From positions 6,241,001 to 6,305,000 of the forward strand of contig NZ_CP030117.1 of assembly GCF_001039275.2 (NCBI RefSeq): DNA of 64,000 nt. Reading direction: 5' to 3'. Positions 4,167-18,711 of the stretch are shown in pieces; within the stretch, counting starts at the first letter, position 1; the number at the start of each line of letters is the position of its first letter. The position numbers and the translations under genes are program-made. The DNA comes from Brevibacillus brevis (GTDB taxonomy: Bacteria; Bacillota; Bacilli; Brevibacillales; Brevibacillaceae). Under the pieces are notes generated by a model. That model was not told the origin of the DNA. It was given only the letters and a program-made list of their open reading frames with translations, and ran no database searches.

Positions 4167-4185
4167 ATCGAAGGAGGTGTCCTAC

Positions 4186-4560
4186 TTGGACGAGCAACCG
4201 CGAATCTCGGATGCCGAATGGGAGATTATGAAGGTCATCTGGGCTAAGTCACCCGCTACAGCAGCCGATGTCATCCACGCCCTGCGAGACAACAAGACGT
4301 GGAAAGACAACACAATCAAAACCTTGCTCAGCCGCCTATTGCAAAAGGGCATTCTCACTTATGAGCAGGTCAATCGAGTCTACTATTACTCTCCTGTGCT
4401 CACTGAGGAAGAATGCAAACGCCAAGAGCGCCATTCCTTTTTGCAGCGCGTGTACGGCGGGGCCTTAAAGCCCATGCTGGTTCACTTTTTAAAAGAGGAA
4501 AAGCTCTCGTCCCATGAGATTGACGAGCTGAAAAAAATCCTTTCTGAAAAGGAGAAATAA
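4186..4560 (+). CDS. blaI: BlaI/MecI/CopY-family transcriptional repressor
   Basis: A 124-residue winged-helix repressor. The N-terminal DNA-binding domain contains ISDAEWEIMKVIW and TIKTLLSRLLQKGIL, and a helical dimerisation tail follows. In this family a partner membrane protease causes repressor cleavage on cell-wall stress. The start is TTG at 4186, seven bases after AGGAGGT. A GTG at 4177 lies inside that ribosome binding site and cannot be the start. The neighbour four bases downstream is a BlaR1-type peptidase. The gene is controlled by its own operators at 4124-4166. Confidence 0.9.
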   Translation: MDEQPRISDAEWEIMKVIWAKSPATAADVIHALRDNKTWKDNTIKTLLSRLLQKGILTYEQVNRVYYYSPVLTEEECKRQERHSFLQRVYGGALKPMLVHFLKEEKLSSHEIDELKKILSEKEK

Positions 4561-4564
4561 GCTG

Positions 4565-5998
4565 GTGGATTGGCAATGGCTCTCACTCACCCTCAATCAA
4601 GCATTTACATGGACACTGTATAACTCCATCGAGGCCAGTCTTCTTGTGCTCCTGATCTTGCTCTGCCAGCAGCTCGGCAAAAAGCATTTCCCCATCCGCT
4701 GGCACCATGCCGTGTGGTTCCTGCTTCTCTGGAAGCTCGCGGTTCCTTGGTCGATAGACAGCACGATCAGTTTGTATAACTGGCTACCTACTTCGTCCTG
4801 GACATCCATGCAGGAAGCACACCCGCCTACAGAACCGATTGTTCTCGCAACTGAGGCACTAAATCGGCATGAATCTGCCTTCCAATCAGATGCCTCTTTA
4901 GTAAACAAAGCGAGCTTTTCCTGGATCAGCCTGCTTTCTCTCATCTGGATCTGCGGTGTCACCATTTTCGCTGGCACCATGACTCTCAGTACATACCGAT
5001 TGCTCTCTCCGCTAAAAAACGATGAGTTCGTACAGGATGTAGCCATTTTGCGCGTCTTTTCCCAATGCCAAAAACAGATGGGCATCTCCAAATCCATTCC
5101 CCTGCGCATGAGTCCCCAGATGACAAGCCCTGCCTTGATGGGAATCTGGCGACCGCAAATCTGGCTGCCCACAAATCTTTTGGACAAGCTCAACGAGCAT
5201 GAGCTGCGCCACATCTTTTTGCATGAGCTGGCGCATTGGAAAAGAAGAGATATTCCTGTAAACAGCGTCATGAGCGTGCTGCTGATCCTCAACTGGTTCA
5301 ACCCGCTGTTATGGTACGCTGCTTCCCGCATGCGTCAGGATCAGGAAATGGCTTGTGATGCCTTGGCTTTGACTTATTTGCAGGAGACAGAGGTACCCCG
5401 CTATGGATACACCATGATCAAAATGCTCGAGCTGTATGCCTGTCCCAAACAGATTCGCTTCACAGCCGGGTTCTCCAGCTCCAAAAAACAGGTGAAAAGG
5501 AGAATAGAAATGATTCGTCACTTTCAAAAACGGGCTTATACGTGGACCCTATCTGGTATTGTGGTCGTCTTGGCTTTAGGCGTCTTCACTTTGACTGATG
5601 CAAAAAAAGCACTAGGGAACGAGGCTACCTTCGCCGTCCCCGCAGAAGGTACAATCAAAAGCCCTATTGATCAAGCAATCGGCTTGAGAATCGTAAACGA
5701 CCTGAATACGCCCGTTCAGGCAGCAGCGGCTGGCAAGGTAGTCAAGGCTGAATACGATACAAAGACAGGGAAAGGCAACCAGGTCATTCTGGAGCATGAA
5801 GGCGGGTATCAAACCGTTTACTCTCATTTGGAAAAGCTGGAGGTCACCGCTGGAGTTGCTGTGACCCAAGGCCAGCTCATTGGTCTGTTGGGAAGTACGG
5901 GACGCAGTACGGGACCGCATCTTGCTTTTCAGATTCTCGAAAATGGTATACCTGTTGATCCGACGAAGCTGTTAGTAGACATAGAAGCAAAAGAATAA
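4565..5998 (+). CDS. BlaR1-type M56 membrane peptidase with degenerate LytM/M23 C-terminal domain
   Basis: A 477-residue signal-transducing metalloprotease that should inactivate the adjacent BlaI. It has N-terminal membrane spans, the M56 zinc motif HELAH at residues 220-224 (LHELAHWKRRD), and a last membrane span near residues 325-345. The usual BlaR1 penicillin-binding sensor is replaced by a LytM/M23-like domain (about residues 360-470). The M23 zinc ligands are missing: the HxGxD motif reads GLRIV and the final HLH reads HLA. The histidines of YSHL and of PHL remain. This suggests a non-catalytic peptidoglycan-binding sensor. The start is GTG at 4565 with AAGGAG upstream. It is co-transcribed with blaI. 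Confidence 0.88.
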   Translation: MDWQWLSLTLNQAFTWTLYNSIEASLLVLLILLCQQLGKKHFPIRWHHAVWFLLLWKLAVPWSIDSTISLYNWLPTSSWTSMQEAHPPTEPIVLATEALNRHESAFQSDASLVNKASFSWISLLSLIWICGVTIFAGTMTLSTYRLLSPLKNDEFVQDVAILRVFSQCQKQMGISKSIPLRMSPQMTSPALMGIWRPQIWLPTNLLDKLNEHELRHIFLHELAHWKRRDIPVNSVMSVLLILNWFNPLLWYAASRMRQDQEMACDALALTYLQETEVPRYGYTMIKMLELYACPKQIRFTAGFSSSKKQVKRRIEMIRHFQKRAYTWTLSGIVVVLALGVFTLTDAKKALGNEATFAVPAEGTIKSPIDQAIGLRIVNDLNTPVQAAAAGKVVKAEYDTKTGKGNQVILEHEGGYQTVYSHLEKLEVTAGVAVTQGQLIGLLGSTGRSTGPHLAFQILENGIPVDPTKLLVDIEAKE

Positions 5999-7995: not shown

Positions 7996-8053
7996 GCTTC
8001 TTCCTCCCACATCGTTTCTCCCACAAGTTTACACCAGGTCCTGCCCGAATGCC

Positions 8054-9808
8054 TTAAATACCAAGCAGCTTTAGCTTCCGATACAAGGTGCGAAGCCCGA
8101 TCCCGAGTTCTTCTGCTACCCGCTGCTTTCCTTTCAAATCGCTGCCATGCTTTTGCAGCGAAGCGCGAATGGCGTCCGCTTGTGCATCGGCGACCCTTGC
8201 TTTGATAGCTGGACCTGAATGCGAAGGAGCCACTGTAGGACGAGCACGAAGGCGCGGAGGCAAGCTGTCCGCAGTCAGAACCGTGTCTTGCTCCATGTTC
8301 ATGGCGTACTCGATGGCGTTTTCCAGCTCCCGCACATTGCCCGGCCAGTGATAGTGCGTGAGCAGGCTCATTGCCTCCCGAGCTATTCCGAAGAAGGTAC
8401 GTCCTGCTTGCTCTCCGTACTTCTCCATAAATGAAACAGCCAAGAGCTCGATGTCTTCCTTGCGCTCTGCGAGTGACGGGACGTGTATTGGAATAACGTT
8501 CAACCGATAGAACAAGTCGGCACGAAACGCTTTTTTCTCCACGAGCTCCTCCAGGTTCTGATTCGTCGCCGCGATGATTCGTACATTGATGGGAAACGAC
8601 CGTGTGCCGCCGATGCGTTCCACGACCTTTTCCTGCAAGACTCGCAGCAGCTTGGCCTGCAACGAGAGTGGCATATCGCCGATCTCATCCAGAAAAAGCG
8701 TACCTCCCTCTGCCAATTCGAACCGCCCTGGCTTTCCTCCCTTTTTGGCTCCGGTAAACGCACCGTCCTCGTATCCGAACAATTCGCTCTCGAACAGATT
8801 TTCCGGAATGCTGGCGCAATTGATCGCGACAAACGGATAGAATGCTCGCGTGCTTGCCTCGTGAATCGCTTTTGCCAGATGTCCTTTGCCTGTCCCTGTT
8901 TCTCCGGTAATCAGTACCGTAGAGCTGCTGTTACCGATTTTCATCGCCATTTCTTTGACCTGTTTGATGGCTGGGCTGTTTCCCACGATTTGAGCCAGGC
9001 TATCCGTTTTGCCAGACGAACGACTCCCTTGATGATCGATCAAACGCGGAACAGTTAACGATCCCCTCTGCACGCGAAGCACACCGCCAATGAGCTGATT
9101 GTTGACGATAATCGGAGTGGCCTCGGTCGGAGCATCCAGCTTGTCAACGAGACAATTGGCGATCGGCAAGGAATGCGCAGCCATCCCGGATAACGACGGC
9201 AGCAGCATCCGTGAAATCTCCGCTGGCAGCAGCTCATGCTGGGACAGCAGTCTACGCGCGCTGGCGTTCGTGTGAATGACATTGCCACTTCGGTCAAAGG
9301 TGAAATACGCATCGGCAACGGTATCCAGCGCTCCCTCCAACAGCCGTATAGAGTCATGAGACGATTCGATTTGTCTCGTCGCATGGGACTGTACAATCGC
9401 CGTAATCATCTCGCTGACTTCTGTCAGGATTTGCTGGTATCTCTCTGTATGCTTGGACAGGCGATTTTGACCTTCCTTCGTAAAGGATGTGAGGGAAACG
9501 ACCCCGATTGCATGATTGGCTACCTTAATAGAGGAGAGCAGTTCGACTTTGGCGGGGCAACTGTCGAGAAAACGGCATCCTTTACACATTTCCATGGAGC
9601 CGGGTTTGTCTACCACATACTGACCTTTTGCCAACACGAATTCAATCGAGGGCACATGCACGTTTTCGCCTTTTTGTTTCAAATAGCGCTCTGTACTCAC
9701 GACCAAGAGGCCGCGCTCGTTAATTACCGCAGCATCTACGTTCAATATATCTGAAATGCTTGTAATGACCTTTTCGATGGCTGGTTTGCACAGATCCAAC
9801 GAAACCAT
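8054..9808 (-). CDS. Sigma-54-dependent activator of the adjacent catabolic operon
   Basis: A 584-residue enhancer-binding protein. The N-terminal sensory domain (about 1-150) carries a cysteine cluster, MCKGCRFLDSC (C-x2-C-x6-C), which could bind a metal or sense redox. A PAS-like domain follows at about 155-240. The AAA+ domain has Walker A GETGTGKG, an intact GAFTGA loop, FLDEIGDMP, and WPGNVRELENAIEYA. A Fis-type helix-turn-helix sits at the C-terminus (VAEELGIGLRTLYRKLKLLGI). GGGAGGA precedes the ATG at 9808. It is divergent from the operon starting at 10071, which has a sigma-54 promoter and upstream palindromes. It is therefore very likely the direct activator. The inducer is unknown, probably an amino acid or derivative imported by this operon. 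Confidence 0.92.
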   Translation of the reverse strand: MVSLDLCKPAIEKVITSISDILNVDAAVINERGLLVVSTERYLKQKGENVHVPSIEFVLAKGQYVVDKPGSMEMCKGCRFLDSCPAKVELLSSIKVANHAIGVVSLTSFTKEGQNRLSKHTERYQQILTEVSEMITAIVQSHATRQIESSHDSIRLLEGALDTVADAYFTFDRSGNVIHTNASARRLLSQHELLPAEISRMLLPSLSGMAAHSLPIANCLVDKLDAPTEATPIIVNNQLIGGVLRVQRGSLTVPRLIDHQGSRSSGKTDSLAQIVGNSPAIKQVKEMAMKIGNSSSTVLITGETGTGKGHLAKAIHEASTRAFYPFVAINCASIPENLFESELFGYEDGAFTGAKKGGKPGRFELAEGGTLFLDEIGDMPLSLQAKLLRVLQEKVVERIGGTRSFPINVRIIAATNQNLEELVEKKAFRADLFYRLNVIPIHVPSLAERKEDIELLAVSFMEKYGEQAGRTFFGIAREAMSLLTHYHWPGNVRELENAIEYAMNMEQDTVLTADSLPPRLRARPTVAPSHSGPAIKARVADAQADAIRASLQKHGSDLKGKQRVAEELGIGLRTLYRKLKLLGI

Positions 9809-9888
9809 GGATATCCTCCCTGCTTATTGTCCTTGCTCTCTATTTTACGAAATATTTAGATAGTTCACAAACGTTTTACCACTGATGT

Positions 9889-9934
9889 TTGTCAATAATG
9901 ACAACTTATTGCCACTTTTGTCACTGTCATGACG
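9889..9934. promoter_or_regulatory. Upstream activator sites (palindromes) for the sigma-54 activator
   Basis: A perfect dyad TTGTCA-ATAA-TGACAA (9889-9904) is followed by TTGTCA (9918-9923) and the palindrome GTCATGAC (9926-9933). The repeated TGTCA/TGACA half-site lies 90-130 bp upstream of the -24/-12 promoter, where enhancer-binding proteins bind. It also lies 80-125 bp upstream of the activator's own start, so autoregulation is possible. Confidence 0.6.
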
Positions 9935-10019
9935 GTACGAAACACAGTCGGAACCTCGTAAAATCAGCTTTTTTACGATCAACCAAGGAGCATGTTACCC
10001 CGCGCGGTTCATTCCACAC

Positions 10020-10037
10020 TTGGCACAGTGATTGCAT
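10020..10037 (+). promoter_or_regulatory. Sigma-54 (-24/-12) promoter
   Basis: TTGGCAC-AGTGA-TTGCAT. The invariant GG (10022-10023) and GC (10034-10035) have the required spacing, and the match to the sigma-54 consensus is near perfect. It lies about 35 bases upstream of the first gene of the operon. Confidence 0.92.
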
Positions 10038-10070
10038 TATAAACTTTTCAACTAGGGGGAGTGATCAACC

Positions 10071-10853
10071 ATGGTAAACACGAACGAGGTATTCAATCTG
10101 CAAGGAAAGGTAGCCTTGGTGACAGGTGCTGCTTCCGGTATCGGACTTGCAACAGCGAAACGACTGGCCCAATTCGGAGTAAACGTCATGCTGCTTGATA
10201 TCAACGAGGAGCTCGGGGAAAAGGCGGCACAAGAAATCGTAGCGGATGGCGGGTCAGCCCGTTATTTTACATGCAATGTAGTTTCCCAACAGGATTGTCG
10301 TGCAGTAACGCAAGCGATCGAGGAAGCTTACGGTCGCATCGATATTTTGTTCAACAACGCAGGCGTGATCAGAAGAAAGACAGTCGTCGAGCTGGAAGAA
10401 GACGATTGGGATCTGGTCGTCGATGTCTCCTTGAAGGGTGCTTACAACCTCTCCAAATTCGTCATTCCTGTCATGGCGAAAACAGGAGGAGGCAGCATCA
10501 TTAACACAGGCTCTGGCTGGGGCATCAAGGGCGGTGACAAGGCGGCGGCCTACTGCGCGGCAAAAGCAGGCGTCGTCAATCTGACACGGGCAATGGCGAT
10601 TGACCACGGTCCGGAAAACATCCGTGTGAATTGCGTGTCACCCGGCGATACCGACACACCTCTGTTGCGTGAAGAAGCGCGCCAGCTTGAAAAAGATGAA
10701 GGAGCATTCCTCGTCTCCTCCGCCCAAGGGCGTCCGCTGGAGCGTCTCGGTTCTCCGCAAGATATTGCCAATGCTGTCCTATTCTTTGCCAGCGACTTGT
10801 CATCCTGGGTGACGGGCTCCGTACTGGTCGTCGACGGCGGCGGTTTGGCTTAA
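10071..10853 (+). CDS. Short-chain dehydrogenase/reductase
   Basis: A 260-residue classical SDR, cytosolic and NAD(P)-dependent. The cofactor motif TGAASGIG is at about residues 18-25, with NNAG in the middle. The catalytic YxxxK appears as YCAAK with an upstream Ser in the GSGWG stretch. An acidic residue after beta-2 (LLDIN) points to NAD(H) preference. GGGGGAGTG precedes the ATG. As the first gene of the sigma-54 operon it probably oxidises a hydroxyl group of the imported compound or of an intermediate. The exact substrate is not predictable. Confidence 0.9.
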   Translation: MVNTNEVFNLQGKVALVTGAASGIGLATAKRLAQFGVNVMLLDINEELGEKAAQEIVADGGSARYFTCNVVSQQDCRAVTQAIEEAYGRIDILFNNAGVIRRKTVVELEEDDWDLVVDVSLKGAYNLSKFVIPVMAKTGGGSIINTGSGWGIKGGDKAAAYCAAKAGVVNLTRAMAIDHGPENIRVNCVSPGDTDTPLLREEARQLEKDEGAFLVSSAQGRPLERLGSPQDIANAVLFFASDLSSWVTGSVLVVDGGGLA

Positions 10854-10905
10854 TGTATCGTTATTTCGACTGAATATTCCAACGAAGAAATGGAGGAACC
10901 ATGTG

Positions 10906-12291
10906 ATGAGCGTACAGCGTTATGCCCACCCGTATATTCCGAATTCTGCACCTGCAGTTAAAGAGAAAATGCTTGCCGAAATCGGCTTTTCCAGCATCGA
11001 GGATATCTATGCGGACATTCCCGGGGAGCTGCGCCTAAAAGAAAAAATGAACATCCCGAAAGCTTTGACCGAATACGAGCTGGAACGCCACGTCAACCAG
11101 CTCATGAACAAAAACCAAACCACAAAAGAAAATATCAGCTTTCTCGGCGCAGGTTGCTGGCCGCATTTTGTTCCGGCTGTTTGTGATGAAATCAACTCCC
11201 GCGCAGAGTTCGTGACCGCGTATGCTGGCGAGCCTTACGAAGACAAGGGGCGCTTTCAGGCGCTGTTCGAGTATCAAAGCCTCGTAGCTGAGCTGGTCGA
11301 TATGGATGTCGTGAATGTTCCGACCTTTGACTGGGCACAGGCCGCTTCGACTGCTCTGCGCATGGCAGCACGCATTACCAACCGTACAGAACTTTTGGTC
11401 TCGAAAAATATCCATCCCGACAAGCTCTTGATCATCAAAAACTACACGTCTCCTGATCTTACCGTCACCTTGATCGATTTTGAGAACGAAACAGGCAGAC
11501 TTGACCTGAATGATCTAAAAGCAAAGCTCAGTGTAGATACAGCAGCAGTTTACTTCGAAAACCCGACCTTCCTCGGCTCCGTGGAAGTACACGGGCAGAT
11601 GATTGCGGACTTGGCTCATGCAGCCGGTGCCATTTGCGTAGTCGGCGTCGATCCCATCTCTCTTGGCGTGATGGAATCTCCGGCGAATTACGGCGCGGAC
11701 ATCGTGTGCGGAGATTTGCAACCGCTCGGCGTACACATGCATTACGGCGGTGGGCAATCCGGCTTTATCGCGACGCATGACGACCCGACCTACGTCATGG
11801 AATATCCGTCCCGCCTTTTTGGAATCGCTCCGACAGAGGTCGAAGGCGAATACGGCTTCGGAGATGTCGCGTACGACCGCACCTCTTTTGCCAAACGCGA
11901 AAAAGGCAAGGAGTCCGTCGGAACGCAAACCGCGCTATGGGGCATTACCGCAGGCGTGTACTTGGCGACGATGGGACCCGTGGGCATGGAAGAAGTCGGG
12001 CAAGGCATCATGCAGCGCTCCCAATACGCCGCCAAGCAGCTCTCTTCCATTCCCGGCGCCGAGGCCAAATTCTCCGCTCCTTTCTTCAAGGAGTTCGTGA
12101 TCGACTTTTCGCAAACAGGCAAAACCGTCAAAGACATCAACGCTGCGCTTCTCGCCAAAGGAATTTTCGGCGGAGTTGATTTGACTGAACACTACCCGGA
12201 ATTGGGTCAATGTGCACTCTACTGCGTCACGGAGGTTCATACCCAGGAGGATATTGATACACTCGTTGCCGCAATAAAAAACATCGTGTAA
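10906..12291 (+). CDS. Divergent glycine-decarboxylase-like PLP protein, GcvPA-type subunit
   Basis: A 461-residue fold-type I PLP protein homologous to subunit 1 of glycine decarboxylase (P protein). The family's FLGAG motif is kept. The next stretch, which in true GcvPA reads close to VYDHYIP and then YTPYQAEISQG, reads CWPHFVP and YAGEPYEDKGR here. This is part of the glycine/lipoyl site, so a substrate other than glycine is likely. No GcvT or GcvH gene is present nearby. GGAGG lies 9 bases before ATG 10906; a GTG at 10903 is an alternative. The gene sits between the dehydrogenase and the catalytic partner subunit. Homology is certain; the reaction is inferred. Confidence 0.85.
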   Translation: MSVQRYAHPYIPNSAPAVKEKMLAEIGFSSIEDIYADIPGELRLKEKMNIPKALTEYELERHVNQLMNKNQTTKENISFLGAGCWPHFVPAVCDEINSRAEFVTAYAGEPYEDKGRFQALFEYQSLVAELVDMDVVNVPTFDWAQAASTALRMAARITNRTELLVSKNIHPDKLLIIKNYTSPDLTVTLIDFENETGRLDLNDLKAKLSVDTAAVYFENPTFLGSVEVHGQMIADLAHAAGAICVVGVDPISLGVMESPANYGADIVCGDLQPLGVHMHYGGGQSGFIATHDDPTYVMEYPSRLFGIAPTEVEGEYGFGDVAYDRTSFAKREKGKESVGTQTALWGITAGVYLATMGPVGMEEVGQGIMQRSQYAAKQLSSIPGAEAKFSAPFFKEFVIDFSQTGKTVKDINAALLAKGIFGGVDLTEHYPELGQCALYCVTEVHTQEDIDTLVAAIKNIV

Positions 12292-12307
12292 AAGGAGGAA
12301 ACCGCCC

Positions 12308-13897
12308 ATGAAAACATCCGAAGGAACAATCGGCAAAATGAAACGGATTCCGAGAGACCATAAGGTACGCCGCTTTCACCAAGCAAAGTGGGATGAGCCT
12401 GTCATTTTCGAGCTGAGCCAGCCCGGCGAGCGTGGCGTCGAGGTCCCGCCCGTCGAGCCACAAATTGTGGAGACCGTAGGCGATGGCATCTCTCAGCTAC
12501 CAGACAGCCTGCGGCGAAAAAAACGGCCGAATCTTCCCGAGATCAGTCAGTACCGCGTGATCCGTCATTACTCCCGCATTTCGCAGGAGGTTCTGGGGTC
12601 GGATTTCAACGTAGAGATCGGGCAAGGCACCTGCACGATGAAATACTCCCCGAAAATCAATGAACGCTTCGTGCGCTCGCCGAAAATGGCGGAGCTGCAT
12701 CCGCTGCAAGACGAATCCACTGTCCAAGGGATGCTGGAGATGACCTATCAGCTCGATCTGTACCTGCGCGAGATTTCGGGAATGGACAAATTCTCGTTCC
12801 AACCGGGCAGCGGCACACAGGCGTTGTTTACCCAGGCCTCTATCGTGCGCAAATACCACGAATCTCGCGGCGAAGGAGAGCAGCGCAACGAGTTTATTAC
12901 CACCCATTTTTCCCACCCGTCCCAAGCCGCGACGGCAGCAGTCAAAGGCTTCAAAATCATTTATGTACCTGCTGACGAAAACGGCTACCCTGATCTGGAA
13001 GCGCTAAAGGGCCTCGTCTCGGAGCGCACCGCCGCCTTTGCCGTAGCGAATCCAGAGGATACAGGCATTTACAACTCCCGCATCAAGGAGTTCACAGACG
13101 TCGTTCACGCCGCAGGAGGGCTGTGCTGCTACGACCAAGCAAACGCCAACGGCTTGCTCGGCATTACACGCGCGCTGGAAGCAGGCTTTGACATGTGCTT
13201 CTTCAACCTGCACAAAACCTTCTCCGTCCCACACGCTTGCGGCGGACCTGCAACAGGTGCCATCGGGGTCACTGCCGAGCTTGCGCCATTCCTGCCAGGA
13301 CCGATCGTAGACTTCGACGGAGAGCGTTACTTCTATAAGCGTGATTTGAAAAACAGCATCGGGAAAGTCCGCAGCTTTTACGGCGTACCACCTGCTGTCC
13401 TGCGCTCCTACGCTTGGGTCCGGGCGCTTGGTGCTGACGGCTTGAGGGAAGTTGCCGAAATCGCTTGCCTCAACAACAACTATCTCTATCACAAAATCCT
13501 GCAAATCCGCGGTGCGAGCGCACCCTATATACAAGGCCGACGCCTGGAGCAGGTTCGCTATAGCTGGCAGCAGTTAAAAGAAGACACCGGCATCACGACA
13601 TACGATGTTCAGCGTCGGATGGTCGACTTTGCCCACCATTACTGGACCAGTCACCACCCGTACGTCGTGCCAGAGCCGTTCACTCTGGAACCGACGGAGT
13701 CTTACTCCATGGCAGAGCTCGACGAGTACATTGCGGCACTGACCCATATTTCACAGGAAGCCTATGAGAATCCGGAGATCGTCAAAACAGCACCGCACAA
13801 TAGTACAGGTCACCGTGTCCTAGAGTCCGTGCTCGATGATCCTGATCAATGGTGTATCACTTGGAGAGCTTATCTGAAAAAGACGGCACAAAATTAG
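12308..13897 (+). CDS. Divergent glycine-decarboxylase-like PLP protein, GcvPB-type catalytic subunit
   Basis: A 529-residue protein, about 40 longer than usual GcvPB because of an N-terminal extension. The PLP lysine is K303 in FNLHKTF. The glycine-rich stretch after it reads PHACGGPATG, where canonical GcvPB has PHGGGGPGMG, again pointing to a distinct subfamily. With the preceding subunit it should form an alpha2beta2-type decarboxylase or a related PLP lyase. Canonical glycine decarboxylation needs lipoyl GcvH, which is not encoded here. AAAGGAGG precedes ATG 12308. A weak hairpin follows the gene. Confidence 0.85.
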   Translation: MKTSEGTIGKMKRIPRDHKVRRFHQAKWDEPVIFELSQPGERGVEVPPVEPQIVETVGDGISQLPDSLRRKKRPNLPEISQYRVIRHYSRISQEVLGSDFNVEIGQGTCTMKYSPKINERFVRSPKMAELHPLQDESTVQGMLEMTYQLDLYLREISGMDKFSFQPGSGTQALFTQASIVRKYHESRGEGEQRNEFITTHFSHPSQAATAAVKGFKIIYVPADENGYPDLEALKGLVSERTAAFAVANPEDTGIYNSRIKEFTDVVHAAGGLCCYDQANANGLLGITRALEAGFDMCFFNLHKTFSVPHACGGPATGAIGVTAELAPFLPGPIVDFDGERYFYKRDLKNSIGKVRSFYGVPPAVLRSYAWVRALGADGLREVAEIACLNNNYLYHKILQIRGASAPYIQGRRLEQVRYSWQQLKEDTGITTYDVQRRMVDFAHHYWTSHHPYVVPEPFTLEPTESYSMAELDEYIAALTHISQEAYENPEIVKTAPHNSTGHRVLESVLDDPDQWCITWRAYLKKTAQN

Positions 13898-13904
13898 TTC
13901 ATCT

Positions 13905-13939
13905 AGGGGCAAGGGCGGCATGTACGCCCTCCCCCTTTT
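13905..13939 (+). terminator. Possible partial terminator or processing hairpin within the operon
   Basis: AGGGCG/CGCCCT stem with flanking GGGG/CCCCC and a short T-run. It separates the enzyme genes from the transporter genes and may reduce, rather than stop, read-through. Confidence 0.4.
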
Positions 13940-14022
13940 CCTCTAGAGGCAGCATACTTTTTTGTTTCCTAGCTGGGTCAGCAAGACGTTTTGCACACCA
14001 TATCTGTTAGGGGGATTCTCGT

Positions 14023-14892
14023 ATGAGGAAGAAAGGTTTGTTTCCTGTCACTCTTTTGGTCAGTTCGCTCGTGCTCTCTATTTTGGGAGGCTGTGCTTCC
14101 AATGCCGCCCCACCACAATCGCCAACAAATGCAACCCCTTCCACCACTCCCTCTACTCCCTCCACTACACCAGAACAGCCTGCTTCTGATGTGAAACTCA
14201 AGCTCGTCCATGAAGGAAAACTGACATTTGCGATGAGCGGTCTGCTCAAGCCACTCAACTACAAAGACACGAATGGCGTACTGACCGGATTCGATGTGGA
14301 GATCGGCAATGAGATCGCCAAACGGATCGGACTCGAAGCCAATCCCGTAACCAATCCGTGGGAAACGATTCTGCAAGGGCTGAAGGGCGGGAAATACGAT
14401 GCCATTATCGGCAGCATGACGCACACAGAAGAACGTGCCAAGCAAGTAGACTTCACCGAGCCCTATTACATCTCCGGCGGGCAAATTTTCATTGCCGAGA
14501 CCAATGACTCGATCAAAACGCAGGACGATCTGCAAGGCAAAGTCATCGGTGTCGTCCAGGCAAGCACTCACAAGGAGGTAGCCGAAACCTTAACGGATAA
14601 GACAAAAGTAAAAGGCTATCCCACAGACATCTACGCCTTGCAGGATCTGGTCCCCGGTCGGGTCGACGCCGTAATCACAGACCGTGTCGTCGGAACCTCT
14701 GCGATCAAGAATCAAGGTCTGAAAATCAAAGCGACAGGCGAGGTTTTGAACAAGGAAAACATTGCGATCGCCGTAACCAAAGACAACCCTGAGCTGACCA
14801 AAAAAATCAATGAAGCCATCAAAGCCATGATTGAAGACGGCACCTACGAGCAAATCAGCGTGAAATGGTTCGGATCGAACCTGTTGAAATAA
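14023..14892 (+). CDS. Amino-acid ABC transporter substrate-binding lipoprotein
   Basis: A 289-residue extracellular binding protein of the polar amino-acid family (SBP_bac_3). It has a lipoprotein signal with lipobox ILGGC (Cys about residue 26), then a Pro/Thr/Ser-rich linker. The binding domain contains GFDVEIGNEIAKRIG, the SMTHTEERAKQVDFTEPYY motif, and a DAVITDRV stretch near the end. It would be anchored to the outer face of the membrane and deliver its ligand to the permease encoded 19 bases downstream. GGGGGA precedes the ATG. Its ligand is presumably the substrate of the two PLP proteins. Confidence 0.92.
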   Translation: MRKKGLFPVTLLVSSLVLSILGGCASNAAPPQSPTNATPSTTPSTPSTTPEQPASDVKLKLVHEGKLTFAMSGLLKPLNYKDTNGVLTGFDVEIGNEIAKRIGLEANPVTNPWETILQGLKGGKYDAIIGSMTHTEERAKQVDFTEPYYISGGQIFIAETNDSIKTQDDLQGKVIGVVQASTHKEVAETLTDKTKVKGYPTDIYALQDLVPGRVDAVITDRVVGTSAIKNQGLKIKATGEVLNKENIAIAVTKDNPELTKKINEAIKAMIEDGTYEQISVKWFGSNLLK

Positions 14893-14911
14893 CGTGGGAG
14901 GTTGAGCAGCC

Positions 14912-15613
14912 ATGGGTTTTGTAACCAGTATCATTGATATATTTACGATTCATGGAAAAGCTTTTTTGGAGGCCGCTTGGATTACCGTTTCGCTCACGGC
15001 TGTATCCTTGGCGATGGCCTCTGTGATCGGACTCGTCTTCGCCTTTTTCAAAGTATCCGGGATTATCGTCCTGCAAAAGCTGGCCGACACCTATATTTTT
15101 ATCGTGCGCGGCATGCCGTTAATCGTCCAGCTCATGTTCCTCTACTACGGGATATCCAGTGTCATCGTGCTCTCTGACTTTACGGCAGGGGCACTCGCGC
15201 TTGGCATCCACTCTGGCGCTTACATTGCCGAGATTTTCCGGGGAGCCATCCAATCGATTGACCGTGGACAGATGGAGGCAGCACGTTCGCTCGGGATGCC
15301 GTATAGCCTGGCGATGCGTCGAATTGTTTTGCCACAAGCCTTCAAACGTGCCATTCCGCCGCTTGGCAATCAATTCATCATCGGACTGAAAGACTCTTCA
15401 CTCGTCGCGTACATTGCCGTAACAGAGCTGTTTAACCGTGCCTTGTCTGCACAAGCAGAGAACTTCATGCCTTTTGAAACGTATTTCGTCGTCGGACTGT
15501 ATTACCTCGCACTCGTCGCCATCTTTTCCTTTCTTTTAAACCGTGTGGAAAAACGTCTCGATACTGGTAGGACGTCCGTCAGCACTCCAAAACCAAAAGA
15601 GGTGGCAGCATGA
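14912..15613 (+). CDS. Amino-acid ABC transporter permease
   Basis: A 233-residue HisM/GlnP-type permease with five or six membrane spans. The EAA loop appears as [22 protein letters not shown], which contacts the ATPase. GTGGGAGG precedes the ATG. The stop overlaps the start of the ATPase gene by four bases (ATGA), which implies coupled translation. Confidence 0.92.
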
Positions 15614-16332
15614 TCAAGGTACGCAATCTGGCCAAGTCATTCGGGAACCTGCATGTACTTAAAAACATCACGCTGTCGATTCAAAAATCAGAAGTGGTTG
15701 TGCTGATCGGAGCGAGTGGGTCAGGGAAAAGCACGCTATTGAGATGTCTGAACTTTCTGGAAATAAAAGACAAAGGTGATATCGAGATCAACAATCAGGT
15801 CATCGATGTCAAAAACAGTGACTTGAACAAAGTACGCGAGCATGTCGGCATGGTTTTTCAGCATTTCAATCTGTTCCCGCATATGACCGTGCTGGAAAAC
15901 GTGATTGAAGCACCGATCTACGTCAAAAGGAAAACCAAGATGGAAGCGACCGCAAAAGCCATGGAGCTATTACGGCGCGTCGGATTGACAGACAAAGCAA
16001 ACGCCTATCCCGAGCAGCTCTCCGGCGGGCAGAAGCAGCGTGTCGCGATTGCCCGTGCTCTGGCGATGGAGCCGGATGTCATGCTGTTTGATGAGCCTAC
16101 TTCTGCCCTGGACCCTGAGCTGGTAGGCGAAGTGCTCGCTACAATGAAAGACCTCGCCCGCGATGGCATGACAATGGTCGTCGTAACGCACGAAATGGGC
16201 TTTGCCCGCGAAGTAGCTGACCGAGTCATTATGCTAGCGGACGGAGAAATGGTCGAAGAAGCCCATCCCCATGAGCTCTTCACCAATCCAAAGCATGAAC
16301 GTACCAAGCGGTTTTTACAACAAATTTTGTAA
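15610..16332 (+). CDS. Amino-acid ABC transporter ATP-binding protein
   Basis: A 240-residue ABC ATPase of the GlnQ/HisP type. Walker A is GASGSGKST, the Q-loop is [12 protein letters not shown], the signature is LSGGQKQR, Walker B is [12 protein letters not shown], and the H-loop is [10 protein letters not shown]. It powers the importer formed with the two preceding genes. Confidence 0.95.
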
Positions 16333-16353
16333 GCCAAAGACGAGGTGGAACCC

Positions 16354-18003
16354 ATGCTACAAAGCCGTGAATCGATCCTGCAATTGACCGATGAATTAGT
16401 CAGCATTGAAAGTATCGTGAACACGACCGGAGAAATCGCCGTTGCTACCCATCTATACGAGCATCTGAAGTCATTCCCCTATTTTCAAAAGCATCCAGAT
16501 CAGTTGATTCTCTCCCGCACGGTCAACGACGAGGTGGAGCGCTACAACGTCCTCGCTTTTGTCAGAGGAACCAAGGAGCCGAGCGCCAAAACCGTTATTT
16601 TAATGGGGCACACGGATACGGTCGGCATCGAGGATTACAACCACCTGAAGGACAAAGCCTGCCATCCAACTGCACTCATGGACGCCTTGAAAAACGAGCC
16701 ACTGCCTGCACTGGTGAGTGAGCAGCTGGAGTCAGGTGATTGGCATTTTGGGCGTGGCGTGCTCGATATGAAAAGCGGCGTAGCGAGCCACGTTTACTTG
16801 CTGAAGTACTATTCCGAGCACCCGGAAGAACTGGCGGGCAATCTCATGCTGCTTGCCGAATGCGACGAAGAAGACAGCTCGCATGGCGTCCTCTCCTCCT
16901 TGAAGAACTTGAAAAAATGGCGGGAGGAGCACAATTTTGACTATATCGCGCTGATTAACTCCGACTTCGTCGCCCCGCGCTACGATGGGGACCCGAATCG
17001 CTATATCTATAAGGGTACTGTCGGCAAGCTGCTGCCCTCCTTTTATATCACGGGCTACGAGACGCATGCGGGCTCTGCTTTTGAGGGACTCGATCCCAAC
17101 TTTATCGCCGCAGAGCTGACTCGCCAGATCAGTTACAATCCTGACCTGTGCGACGAAGCCTACGGCGAGACACCTGTGCCGCCTGTATCTTTGAAGCAGA
17201 CAGACTTCAAGCCGACCTACACGATCCAGACCGCCCTGTCAGCCTATGTCTATTACAATTTCTTCATCCATTCCTGGTCTCCGAAACAAGTCTTGGCACT
17301 ACTAAAGGAGCAAGCCGAGATCGCTTTCGAAAACGCACTGACTCTGTTGCGTGAGCGTCATCGCCGCTTCTGTGAAAAGAGCGGTCAAGCTTGGACTCCA
17401 CTCCCTTGGAAGACCCGAGTTTTGATCTACGAGGATATGAAAAAAGAGCTGATCGCCGAGCATGGGGACGCCTTCCTCTCGCACATGAAGCAGTTTAAAG
17501 AGGCCCTTTTGCAAGACAAAACCTTGGATGTACGCATGTTCTCAGCTCGTGTGGTTGAGGAGGAGGTCAAGTGGATGAAGGACAGAAGCCCCGCCATCAT
17601 CTTGTTCTATTCCTCACTCTACTCTCCCCGCATCGAACTCGTTGGCAAGGACGACCGGGAGCAAAACTTGATAGAGGCATTGGAACAAGCCGTTGCGGCT
17701 GTCCAGCCGGATTATGCACACCCAATCGTGACGCGCAACTTTTTCCCGTACGTTTGCGATATGAGCTGCGTGGCGCTTTCAGACGATGAGGAAGGCATTC
17801 TCGCGATCGAAGAGAACAACCCGAGCTGGGGCAGCAAGCATTACGTCGAGTATCAGGACATTCGGGACATCAATGTACCTTGCATCAACATCGGTCCGTA
17901 TGGGTACGATGCGCATAACCGTTTTGAACGGATGGAGATTACGTATTCGACAGAAGTGGTTCCCTCTGTGACGAACGAGATTATCAAGCGTCTATTGAAA
18001 TAA
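16354..18003 (+). CDS. RocB-like M20-family metallopeptidase
   Basis: A 549-residue M20 peptidase/deacylase homologue, matching the length of RocB from Bacillus arginine catabolism rather than the shorter carboxypeptidases. Metal-site motifs are GHTDTVG, DMKSGVASH and ECDEEDSSHG. ATG 16354 with GAGGTG six bases upstream is preferred over the in-frame GTG at 16345. As last gene of the sigma-54 operon it may hydrolyse an acyl, amide or peptide bond of the imported compound. RocB's own reaction is not well defined, so this is inference. Confidence 0.85.
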   Translation: MLQSRESILQLTDELVSIESIVNTTGEIAVATHLYEHLKSFPYFQKHPDQLILSRTVNDEVERYNVLAFVRGTKEPSAKTVILMGHTDTVGIEDYNHLKDKACHPTALMDALKNEPLPALVSEQLESGDWHFGRGVLDMKSGVASHVYLLKYYSEHPEELAGNLMLLAECDEEDSSHGVLSSLKNLKKWREEHNFDYIALINSDFVAPRYDGDPNRYIYKGTVGKLLPSFYITGYETHAGSAFEGLDPNFIAAELTRQISYNPDLCDEAYGETPVPPVSLKQTDFKPTYTIQTALSAYVYYNFFIHSWSPKQVLALLKEQAEIAFENALTLLRERHRRFCEKSGQAWTPLPWKTRVLIYEDMKKELIAEHGDAFLSHMKQFKEALLQDKTLDVRMFSARVVEEEVKWMKDRSPAIILFYSSLYSPRIELVGKDDREQNLIEALEQAVAAVQPDYAHPIVTRNFFPYVCDMSCVALSDDEEGILAIEENNPSWGSKHYVEYQDIRDINVPCINIGPYGYDAHNRFERMEITYSTEVVPSVTNEIIKRLLK

Positions 18004-18009
18004 GAAAAA

Positions 18010-18048
18010 CGCCAGCTCGGATTGCACCAGGAGCTGGCGTACTTTTTT
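18010..18048. terminator. Terminator of the sigma-54 operon
   Basis: CGCCAGCTC/GAGCTGGCG hairpin followed by TACTTTTTTG. An A-run on the left makes it usable for the convergent gene too. Confidence 0.85.
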
Positions 18049-18057
18049 GGATTGTTG

Positions 18058-18711
18058 TTAGAACTGATTCGGGAACTGCTTAATGATGCCTGCTGTCAGC
18101 ACATCAGCGAATGAGATGATATGATCCTCACCTTTATCAAACGCAGCAATATCCGCTTCCCAGTCTTTTTTCAATCTCGCCTGGAGATTATCAGTGAGTA
18201 GCTTCAGATGCGTGTACATCATCTCTTTTAGTTCTTTCTCGTTCCAATTGGGGTTGGCACTGCTCAAGAACTTGGCGATCTCATCCGCATTCCGGTGCCA
18301 GTCCTTATCGAGCTTTGCCACAGCAGCCTGATCACCTTTTTTAGCTGCGTCAATGATTTTGCCGCCTATGGTAATATGAGCCGTCAGCAATTCGGTAAGC
18401 TTTTTACCTGCTTCCTCTCCGTAATACGGCTTGATTGCGTTCCCGATATCCACCTGGTTTTTCAAGAGACGTGCCTGTACGGCGTCTTTGTCTTCCAGCC
18501 CTGCCAAGGCGCTGACCATATAGGTGTGATCCCACAGCAAATGGTCGATCCAGAGCCTGCGCATATCACCCTGAAGCTTTACTTCTTTCGGCTTTATACA
18601 TTCTGCCTGCTGTACATTCCCTTGTGATTCCTTGGCTGCTGCCATACCCGGCACACCAAGTAATGCCATGCAAATCATCAACAATGTTGCTTTCCTGAGC
18701 ATTGTAGTCAT
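18058..18711 (-). CDS. Secreted helical protein of unknown function
   Basis: A 217-residue protein with an N-terminal signal peptide (hydrophobic core about residues 8-22, cleavage near AAA-KES). The mature part is almost entirely helical. It has regularly placed His/Asp residues in DHLLWDHTYM, AHITIGGK, KDWHRN and YTHLKLL that could form a metal or small-ligand site in a four-helix bundle. AAAGGAG precedes the ATG. It is monocistronic. I recall similar Bacilli proteins only as hypothetical or misnamed, so no function is given. Confidence 0.75.
   Translation of the reverse strand: MTTMLRKATLLMICMALLGVPGMAAAKESQGNVQQAECIKPKEVKLQGDMRRLWIDHLLWDHTYMVSALAGLEDKDAVQARLLKNQVDIGNAIKPYYGEEAGKKLTELLTAHITIGGKIIDAAKKGDQAAVAKLDKDWHRNADEIAKFLSSANPNWNEKELKEMMYTHLKLLTDNLQARLKKDWEADIAAFDKGEDHIISFADVLTAGIIKQFPNQF

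What the first reader, a model, noticed from the sequence alone, without database searches (positions are those of the whole stretch)
10906..13897. P-protein-like pair with changed glycine-site motifs and no GcvT/GcvH
The stretch after FLGAG (YTPYQAEISQG in the family) is replaced by YAGEPYEDKGR, and PHGGGG after the PLP lysine is PHACGG. Without a lipoyl carrier gene nearby, glycine cleavage is doubtful. A new decarboxylase or lyase activity is possible.
Basis: partly seen in the sequence, partly recalled or inferred. Interest (0 to 1): 0.6.

Follow-up and report, generated by a model that had tools for sequence, protein, structure and literature searches.

The report
Repurposed glycine-decarboxylase-like enzyme pair
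A soil bacterium carries a pair of proteins annotated as glycine decarboxylase that belong to a separate, widespread enzyme family, probably used to break down a sugar-linked amino acid such as the hydroxylysine of collagen.

Summary
Window 10906-12291 and 12308-13897 encode a GcvPA/GcvPB-like pair in which YTPYQPEISQG has become YAGEPYEDKGR and PHGGGG has become PHACGG. No gcvT or gcvH lies nearby. The same genome has a canonical gcvT-PA-PB operon with a tandem glycine riboswitch, and gcvH elsewhere. In trees with canonical GcvPB (three solved proteins included) the pair's family is one side of a branch, support 100/100. None of 112 paralog PA rows keeps TPYQ. Seven carrier genomes show neither GcvT nor full-length GcvH (four are 92-99% complete). 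So standard glycine cleavage is unlikely. In 78 of the 80 best relatives an SDR gene sits directly beside the pair; 61 of 80 have a GH2 (LacZ-type) or GH63-like glycosidase gene within 9 kb. The window itself has an amino-acid ABC importer and an M20 hydrolase. Best hypothesis: the substrate is 5-hydroxylysine, from Glc-Gal-hydroxylysine or imported; the SDR oxidises its C5-OH, and the pair cleaves the resulting aminomethyl ketone to glutamate and methylamine. Family and context are shown; substrate and chemistry are inferred. NCBI models name the pair GcvPA/GcvPB above cut-off, so it is probably misannotated.

The parts
8054..9808 (-). divergent sigma-54-dependent activator; best NCBIfam model PrdR (proline reductase regulator), below its cut-off
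   Evidence: NF041552, 385 bits, cut-off 795; PF00158
9889..9904 (.). perfect palindrome TTGTCA-N4-TGACAA, candidate activator site
   Evidence: only match in the window; at least one match in 23 of 100 shuffles, so weak on its own
10021..10036 (+). perfect sigma-54 -24/-12 element upstream of the SDR gene
   Evidence: only exact match in the window; 1.36 expected at up to 1 mismatch, 2 found; exact elements in 11 of 90 SDR loci, all 11 among the 22 loci with the activator gene
10071..10853 (+). SDR oxidoreductase, first gene of the putative operon
   Evidence: an SDR of at least 45% identity within 400 bp on the same strand in 78 of 80 relatives
10906..12291 (+). GcvPA-like subunit (PA paralog), 461 aa
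   Evidence: canonical PA of the same genome is 37% identical
11221..11253 (+). YAGEPYEDKGR in place of canonical YTPYQPEISQG
12308..13897 (+). GcvPB-like subunit (PB paralog), 529 aa, PLP lysine K303
13229..13246 (+). PHACGG in place of canonical PHGGGG
14023..14892 (+). family-3 solute-binding protein of an amino-acid ABC importer; best solved relative 3vv5 and its sister entries
14912..15613 (+). amino-acid ABC permease
15610..16332 (+). amino-acid ABC ATPase
16345..18003 (+). M20-family hydrolase (RocB-like; that name is recalled), present in exactly the same 10 of 80 relatives as this importer's binding protein

Best explanation
The pair is the PLP enzyme of a catabolic module, SDR-PA-PB, not a glycine cleavage component. 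Proposed working: the cell takes up hydroxylysine, its collagen glycosides (Glc-alpha-1,2-Gal-beta-O-Hyl, Gal-beta-O-Hyl) or small derivatives. In relatives a GH63-like enzyme removes glucose and a GH2/GH42 beta-galactosidase removes galactose. The SDR oxidises the freed C5 hydroxyl to a ketone, giving 2,6-diamino-5-oxohexanoate, whose end H2N-CH2-C(=O)-R is a ketone analogue of glycine. PA/PB forms the aldimine at the C6 amine, and water attack at C5 splits C5-C6. This leaves L-glutamate and the same PLP-stabilised aminomethyl carbanion that glycine decarboxylase makes after losing CO2. It is protonated and released as methylamine instead of being passed to lipoyl H-protein. Shown: a separate family, its rewritten glycine-site and predicted H-contact segments, carriers without GcvT/H, the SDR triad, the glycosidase and amino-acid-importer contexts. 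Inferred: hydroxylysine, the keto intermediate, the retro-Claisen step, methylamine.
For: Separate clade 100/100. Family-wide loss of TPYQ (0 of 112) and of REQHIRR (0 of 112 against 22 of 22 canonical); these segments map to residues annotated 'Active Site' (Y161, Y164) and 'H-interface' (Q366, I372, R373, K376) in human GLDC (PMC7259800, passages; my mapping). GcvT and full-length GcvH both absent in 7 carriers, of which G040 also has no canonical GcvP. Within 9 kb of the PA gene in 80 loci: SDR of at least 45% identity in 80 (78 within 400 bp, same strand), GH2 in 53, GH63-like in 27, either in 61, both in 19. Similar sets recur far away: G375 has a GH2 fragment, SDR, PA, PB, a galactokinase-family gene and a GH63-like gene; G673 and G705 have SDR-PA-PB-GH42 and G673 also GH63-like and epimerase (GalE-like) genes. 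Galactokinase-like genes also in L116, L126, L127, so 4 of 123 loci. The window's binding protein best matches 3vv5/3vvd/3vve/3vvf, which I recall as a binder of lysine and its analogues. Genes that fit acid plus amine products: copper amine oxidase and acyl-CoA ligase in Gemmobacter, acyl-CoA ligase in Rhodococcus, a dimethylamine methyltransferase plus corrinoid protein in G241. No further pathway gene is needed if the products are glutamate and methylamine. The host genome has two strong M9 collagenase matches.
Against: No direct evidence for hydroxylysine. M9 collagenase gives no clear support: strong hits in 1 of 27 carriers (the host itself) vs 1 of 371 others (p=0.13), over cut-off 2 of 27 vs 4 of 371 (p=0.056); counting also weak partial matches, mostly below cut-off, it is 6 of 27 vs 16 of 371 (p=0.002), which I do not lean on since related genomes are not independent and these hits are probably other metalloproteases. 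GH2 and GH63-like enzymes have many substrates, and G673's cluster also holds an alpha-galactosidase, which fits plant galactosides too. In the Bacillota sample of 27 loci only 7 have the SDR by the same test, 1 GH2, 1 GH63-like and 1 the amino-acid importer, so the glycoside context belongs mainly to the close group. The amine-oxidase and methyltransferase loci are single cases in more distant relatives (PB 50 and 57% identity), and the methyltransferase is the dimethylamine type. Most carriers do have GcvH and GcvT. I did not search the host for a methylamine sink. The NAD-kinase-like gene beside most distant members is unexplained.
Confidence: 0.38

Rival explanations
1. A second, specialised glycine decarboxylase that uses the GcvH and GcvT encoded elsewhere in the genome.
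For: Both proteins pass the NCBIfam cut-offs as GcvPA/GcvPB; the PLP lysine and its surroundings are kept; GcvT and GcvH exist in the host.
Against: Separate clade; glycine-site and predicted H-contact segments rewritten family-wide; no glycine riboswitch found at the pair although the canonical operon has two aptamers; 7 carriers lack GcvT and full-length GcvH.
Confidence: 0.06
2. Lipoyl-independent alpha-decarboxylase of a larger amino acid, for example hydroxylysine to its diamine, with the SDR acting on substrate or product.
For: Same family and PLP site as a decarboxylase, with the glycine pocket remodelled; amine-using genes in L194 and L165.
Against: Leaves an amino alcohol that should need more enzymes, and I saw none conserved in the operons; acyl-CoA ligases in L193/L194 point to an acid product.
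Confidence: 0.2
3. Same aminoketone cleavage, but the aminomethyl group goes to lipoyl-GcvH and on to 5,10-methylene-THF where GcvH/T exist.
For: GcvH and GcvT present in 17 of 18 carriers and in 21 of 28; G040 is in both sets.
Against: Predicted H-contact segment lost; family kept in carriers without H/T; most hosts would be expected to have GcvH/T anyway.
Confidence: 0.12
4. Same module and chemistry, different aglycone: another galactosylated or free 1,2-amino alcohol, with subfamilies serving different ones.
For: Pocket residues vary between subfamilies and distant members have other neighbours (APC and TTT transporters, acyl-CoA ligases).
Against: I know no other common amino acid carrying Glc-Gal (recalled, not searched); the window's importer resembles an amino-acid binder that I recall as basic-amino-acid specific.
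Confidence: 0.24

Closest known systems
Two-subunit glycine cleavage P-protein (GcvPA/GcvPB; Thermus 1wyt/1wyu/1wyv)
   Same: Two adjacent genes, near full-length homology to both subunits, PLP lysine in NLHKTF, CTMKY and YD-AN motifs
   Different: TPYQ lost; HGTNP became HP, GGGGPG lost, REQHIRR lost; no GcvT/H gene nearby, no glycine riboswitch found, SDR partner
Monomeric glycine decarboxylase (human GLDC 6i33, 4lgl)
   Same: Homologous halves, same PLP lysine motif
   Different: As above; the GLDC residues annotated Active Site (Y164) and H-interface are not kept
Mammalian hydroxylysine route (hydroxylysine kinase plus PLP phospho-lyase; recalled)
   Same: Would act on the same amino acid with a PLP enzyme
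   Different: Kinase plus phospho-lyase, no SDR; the PLP enzyme there is, as I recall, aminotransferase-like, not a P-protein
2-amino-3-ketobutyrate CoA ligase with threonine dehydrogenase (recalled)
   Same: A dehydrogenase makes an amino ketone and a PLP enzyme cleaves it
   Different: CoA thiolysis giving glycine; a different PLP enzyme family

Membership tests
Glycine cleavage system P-protein (GcvPA/GcvPB) | Sequence homology over both subunits and NCBIfam cut-offs | tested here: met
   522 vs 364 and 573 vs 441 bits
Glycine cleavage system P-protein (GcvPA/GcvPB) | PLP-binding lysine in NLHKTF | tested here: met
   K303
Glycine cleavage system P-protein (GcvPA/GcvPB) | Conserved TPYQ and GGGGPG segments | tested here: not met
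   TPYQ in 22 of 22 canonical and 0 of 112 paralog rows; GGGGPG in 24 of 24 and 0 of 105
Glycine cleavage system P-protein (GcvPA/GcvPB) | Groups with canonical P-proteins in a tree | tested here: not met
   separate side of a branch, 100/100 (unrooted)
Glycine cleavage system P-protein (GcvPA/GcvPB) | Works with GcvH and GcvT | tested here: inconclusive
   no genes nearby; not found in 7 carriers but present in the host and most carriers; no assay
Glycine cleavage system P-protein (GcvPA/GcvPB) | Glycine riboswitch (usual in such Bacillota operons, not strictly defining) | tested here: not met
   no Rfam match in window 8000-18100; two aptamers in the canonical operon
Glycine cleavage system P-protein (GcvPA/GcvPB) | Decarboxylates glycine | not testable with these tools
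   needs enzyme assay
Hydroxylysine catabolic module (proposed) | Genes to release and oxidise a galactosylated hydroxy amino acid | tested here: inconclusive
   SDR in 80 of 80, GH2 or GH63-like in 61 of 80 within 9 kb; aglycone not shown

The most novel reading that the evidence does not exclude
A new enzyme family derived from glycine decarboxylase that cleaves alpha-aminomethyl ketones hydrolytically (retro-Claisen) to a carboxylic acid and methylamine, without lipoate, and that gives bacteria a route from collagen's glycosylated hydroxylysine to glutamate.
Probability: 0.28. Interest if true: 0.82.

Novelty: new variant of a known kind. Interest (0 to 1): 0.62.

Why it matters
If right, a family found in 27 of 398 sampled Bacillota genomes (host included), in 8 of 297 genomes sampled around an Aminicenantes one and on 8 plasmid records of other phyla is misnamed as glycine cleavage in public annotation (the annotated plasmid records call it gcvPA/gcvPB). 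It would show how a decarboxylase becomes a C-C hydrolase by replacing the leaving group (CO2 by an acid). It would also give a directly testable bacterial route for hydroxylysine of collagen; the listings of my searches showed no paper on such an operon (open-licence PMC papers only).

Tried and rejected
Glycine cleavage paralog: rejected as main reading (clade, motifs, no riboswitch, carriers without H/T). Collagenase co-occurrence as support: tested over 398 genomes; not significant for strong or over-cut-off matches, p=0.002 only if weak partial matches are counted, not relied on. A missing alpha-carboxylate arginine in the binding protein as an argument against an amino-acid ligand: dropped, because the nearest solved relative also seems to lack it (by eye; the arginine's role is recalled). 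Structure prediction of the PB subunit alone was useless (mean pLDDT 34); the second job was not spent. Paper searches: judged by listed titles and abstract starts, none is about this family or a hydroxylysine operon; only PMC7259800 was opened, by passages. One degenerate PA row (L118:2762-4087) was left out of the comparison. Only the best 80 of 224 relatives were returned. The tree used 74 of 129 PB rows after thinning; that used 47 chosen rows. In one search the tool's tally of 24 of 28 for GcvH includes partial 22-24 bit matches in G123, G376 and G040; I count 21 of 28. Likewise 17, not 18, of 18.
Full report
Observation. Window 10906-12291 and 12308-13897 encode two adjacent proteins that score above the NCBIfam cut-offs for GcvPA and GcvPB. 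In Pfam the first matches GDC-P and the second GcvP2_C, both over cut-off. The quoted motifs are exact: YAGEPYEDKGR at 11221-11253, PHACGG at 13229-13246, PLP lysine K303 of the second protein. The gap between the two genes is 16 bp, and SDR to PA is 52 bp.

A second, canonical locus exists. The window lies at G000:C1:6241001-6305000 of a 6.44 Mb contig. PF02347 finds a canonical gcvPA/PB at 2413394/2414835; GcvT is at 2412270 and the only full-length GcvH at 5175868. The canonical PA is 37% identical to the window's PA. The canonical operon carries a tandem glycine riboswitch. Window 8000-18100 has no Rfam match over gathering score but has an exact sigma-54 -24/-12 element at 10021-10036 before the SDR gene and a divergent sigma-54 activator gene, 8054-9808. 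Of 90 loci with the SDR, 11 have an exact element, and all 11 are among the 22 loci with the activator gene. The Fisher value, 1.7e-8, treats related loci as independent and is only a guide.

A separate family. Relatives were collected from named genomes (80 best of 224), the host's order (14 of 39 genomes carry one at 75-100% identity, host included, plus one 49% paralog), a Bacillota sample (27 of 398, host included), a sample around an Aminicenantes genome (8 of 297) and plasmids (8 records). In a tree of 74 PB rows, 59 paralogs and 15 canonical rows are the two sides of one branch, 100/100. Adding the Thermus subunit and two monomeric P-protein C-termini gives the same (38 vs 9, 100/100). 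Column comparison of PA (22 canonical, 93 close and 19 distant paralog rows) and PB (24, 86, 19): TPYQ is in 22 of 22 canonical and 0 of 112 paralog rows, REQHIRR in 22 of 22 and 0 of 112, GGGGPG in 24 of 24 and 0 of 105, HGTNP in 24 of 24; paralogs have HP at that place in 105 of 105, YDQA in 103 of 105, and PH.CGGPA in 84 of 86 close rows, while distant subfamilies vary there. In human GLDC, Y161 and Y164 are listed as 'Active Site' and Q366, I372, R373, K376 as 'H-interface' (PMC7259800, passages only; these come from a homology model and docking, not from measurement). I mapped them by aligning the canonical PA to chain 6i33 with an offset of 43 set by K754; they fall on the two Tyr of YTPYQ and on QTREQHIRRDK.

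Carriers without GcvT and GcvH. Among 18 carriers, full-length GcvH is found in 17 and GcvT in 17; G040 (L100) shows neither and only one GDC-P match, the paralog. Among 28 handles (G040 again, and G033), GcvT is found in 21 and full-length GcvH in 21. The same seven lack both: G040, G080 (94% complete, 7% contamination), G123 (99%), G299 (92%), G340 (61%), G375 (72%), G376 (94%). G040, G080, G375 and G376 belong to the close group with the SDR. Incomplete assemblies weaken any single case, less so the set.

Neighbourhood. In the 80 named loci an SDR of at least 45% identity is within 9 kb in 80, and within 400 bp on the same strand in 78; PB is present in 80. GH2 (LacZ type) lies within 9 kb in 53 (34 of these within 1.5 kb and on the same strand), GH63-like in 27, either in 61, both in 19. 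The amino-acid binding protein and the M20 (RocB-like) hydrolase occur in the same 10 loci (families, tested on representatives). A common Paenibacillus order is two-component system, sugar-type binding protein and permeases, GH2, SDR, PA, PB. Similar sets recur far away: G375 has a GH2 fragment, SDR, PA, PB, a galactokinase-family gene and a GH63/YgjK-like enzyme; G673 and G705, of the same phylum as L128 (Acidobacteriota in GTDB, recalled), have SDR-PA-PB-GH42, and G673 also a GH63-like enzyme (PF22422), an epimerase that reads like GalE, an alpha-galactosidase and an ORF that reads like GalT (by eye). Galactokinase-like genes also lie in L116, L126 and L127 (L116 and L127 checked). In the Aminicenantes locus L128 a trans-3-hydroxyproline dehydratase/proline racemase-like gene precedes the SDR. 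By contrast, of the 27 Bacillota-sample loci only 7 pass the SDR test, 1 has GH2, 1 GH63-like and 1 the amino-acid importer: the glycoside context belongs mainly to the close group.

Reading. A GH63-like enzyme plus a beta-galactosidase plus a dehydrogenase for the freed hydroxyl, in operons whose other form has a polar amino-acid importer, suggests a hydroxy amino acid carried as a Glc-Gal glycoside. 5-Hydroxylysine of collagen is the one I know (recalled). The nearest solved binding protein to the window's is 3vv5 with 3vvd, 3vve, 3vvf, which I recall as a Thermus protein solved with lysine and its analogues. Oxidising C5 would give H2N-CH2-CO-R, a ketone analogue of glycine, which explains why a glycine decarboxylase ancestor could be recruited. 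Cleavage gives R-COOH (glutamate) and the same PLP-bound aminomethyl carbanion. More distant relatives have genes that fit an acid plus an amine: acyl-CoA ligase in Rhodococcus L193, acyl-CoA ligase and copper amine oxidase in Gemmobacter L194, dimethylamine methyltransferase with an in-frame TAG and a corrinoid protein in G241. These are single cases, and L193 and L194 belong to another subfamily.

Against. M9 collagenase gives no clear support: strong matches 1 of 27 carriers (the host) vs 1 of 371, p=0.13; over cut-off 2 of 27 vs 4 of 371, p=0.056; with weak partial matches 6 of 27 vs 16 of 371, p=0.002, the last not relied on. The aglycone and reaction are untested. GH families are broad, and G673's alpha-galactosidase would also fit plant galactosides. 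An ordinary alpha-decarboxylase of a larger amino acid cannot be excluded. The NAD-kinase-like gene found in 19 of 27 Bacillota loci and 7 of 8 plasmid loci has no role in my scheme.

Print. The listings (empty), judged by titles and abstract starts, show no paper on this family or on a hydroxylysine operon; the library holds open-licence PMC papers only, so absence there is weak evidence.

Verdict. Observation confirmed; 'not glycine cleavage' well supported (about 0.9); an aglycone handled together with the SDR likely (about 0.7); hydroxylysine about 0.45; the full mechanism about 0.38.

Noticed in passing
L165 (G241) 12998-15051: Dimethylamine methyltransferase gene (PF09505) with an in-frame TAG at residue 350, followed by a corrinoid protein, beside SDR-PA-PB and an NAD-kinase-like gene.
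   Followed up: partly
L118 2762-4087: Neobacillus soli has a degraded-looking PA-like ORF (40% identity) beside the amino-acid importer and M20 (RocB-like) gene, with a second SDR-PA-PB further on.
   Followed up: no
L100 12981-14099 and many others: An ATP-NAD-kinase-family gene accompanies the pair in 19 of 27 Bacillota-sample loci and 7 of 8 plasmid loci but in only 3 of the 80 closest; role unknown.
   Followed up: partly
L172, L171, L170, L169: A distant subfamily sits near DUF436-like genes (PF04260 shown for L172), APC-type permeases and, in some genomes, the canonical gcv operon.
   Followed up: no
window 4177-5998: BlaI/MecI-like repressor next to a BlaR1-like M56 protein whose C-terminal part reads like an M23 peptidase domain (by eye).
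   Followed up: no
G000:C1:4568116-4569087 and 4084741-4085586: Two strong M9 collagenase matches in the host genome; only one other genome of 398 has one above 100 bits.
   Followed up: partly
window 9889-9904: Perfect palindrome TTGTCA-N4-TGACAA between the activator and the SDR promoter, a candidate upstream activating site.
   Followed up: no
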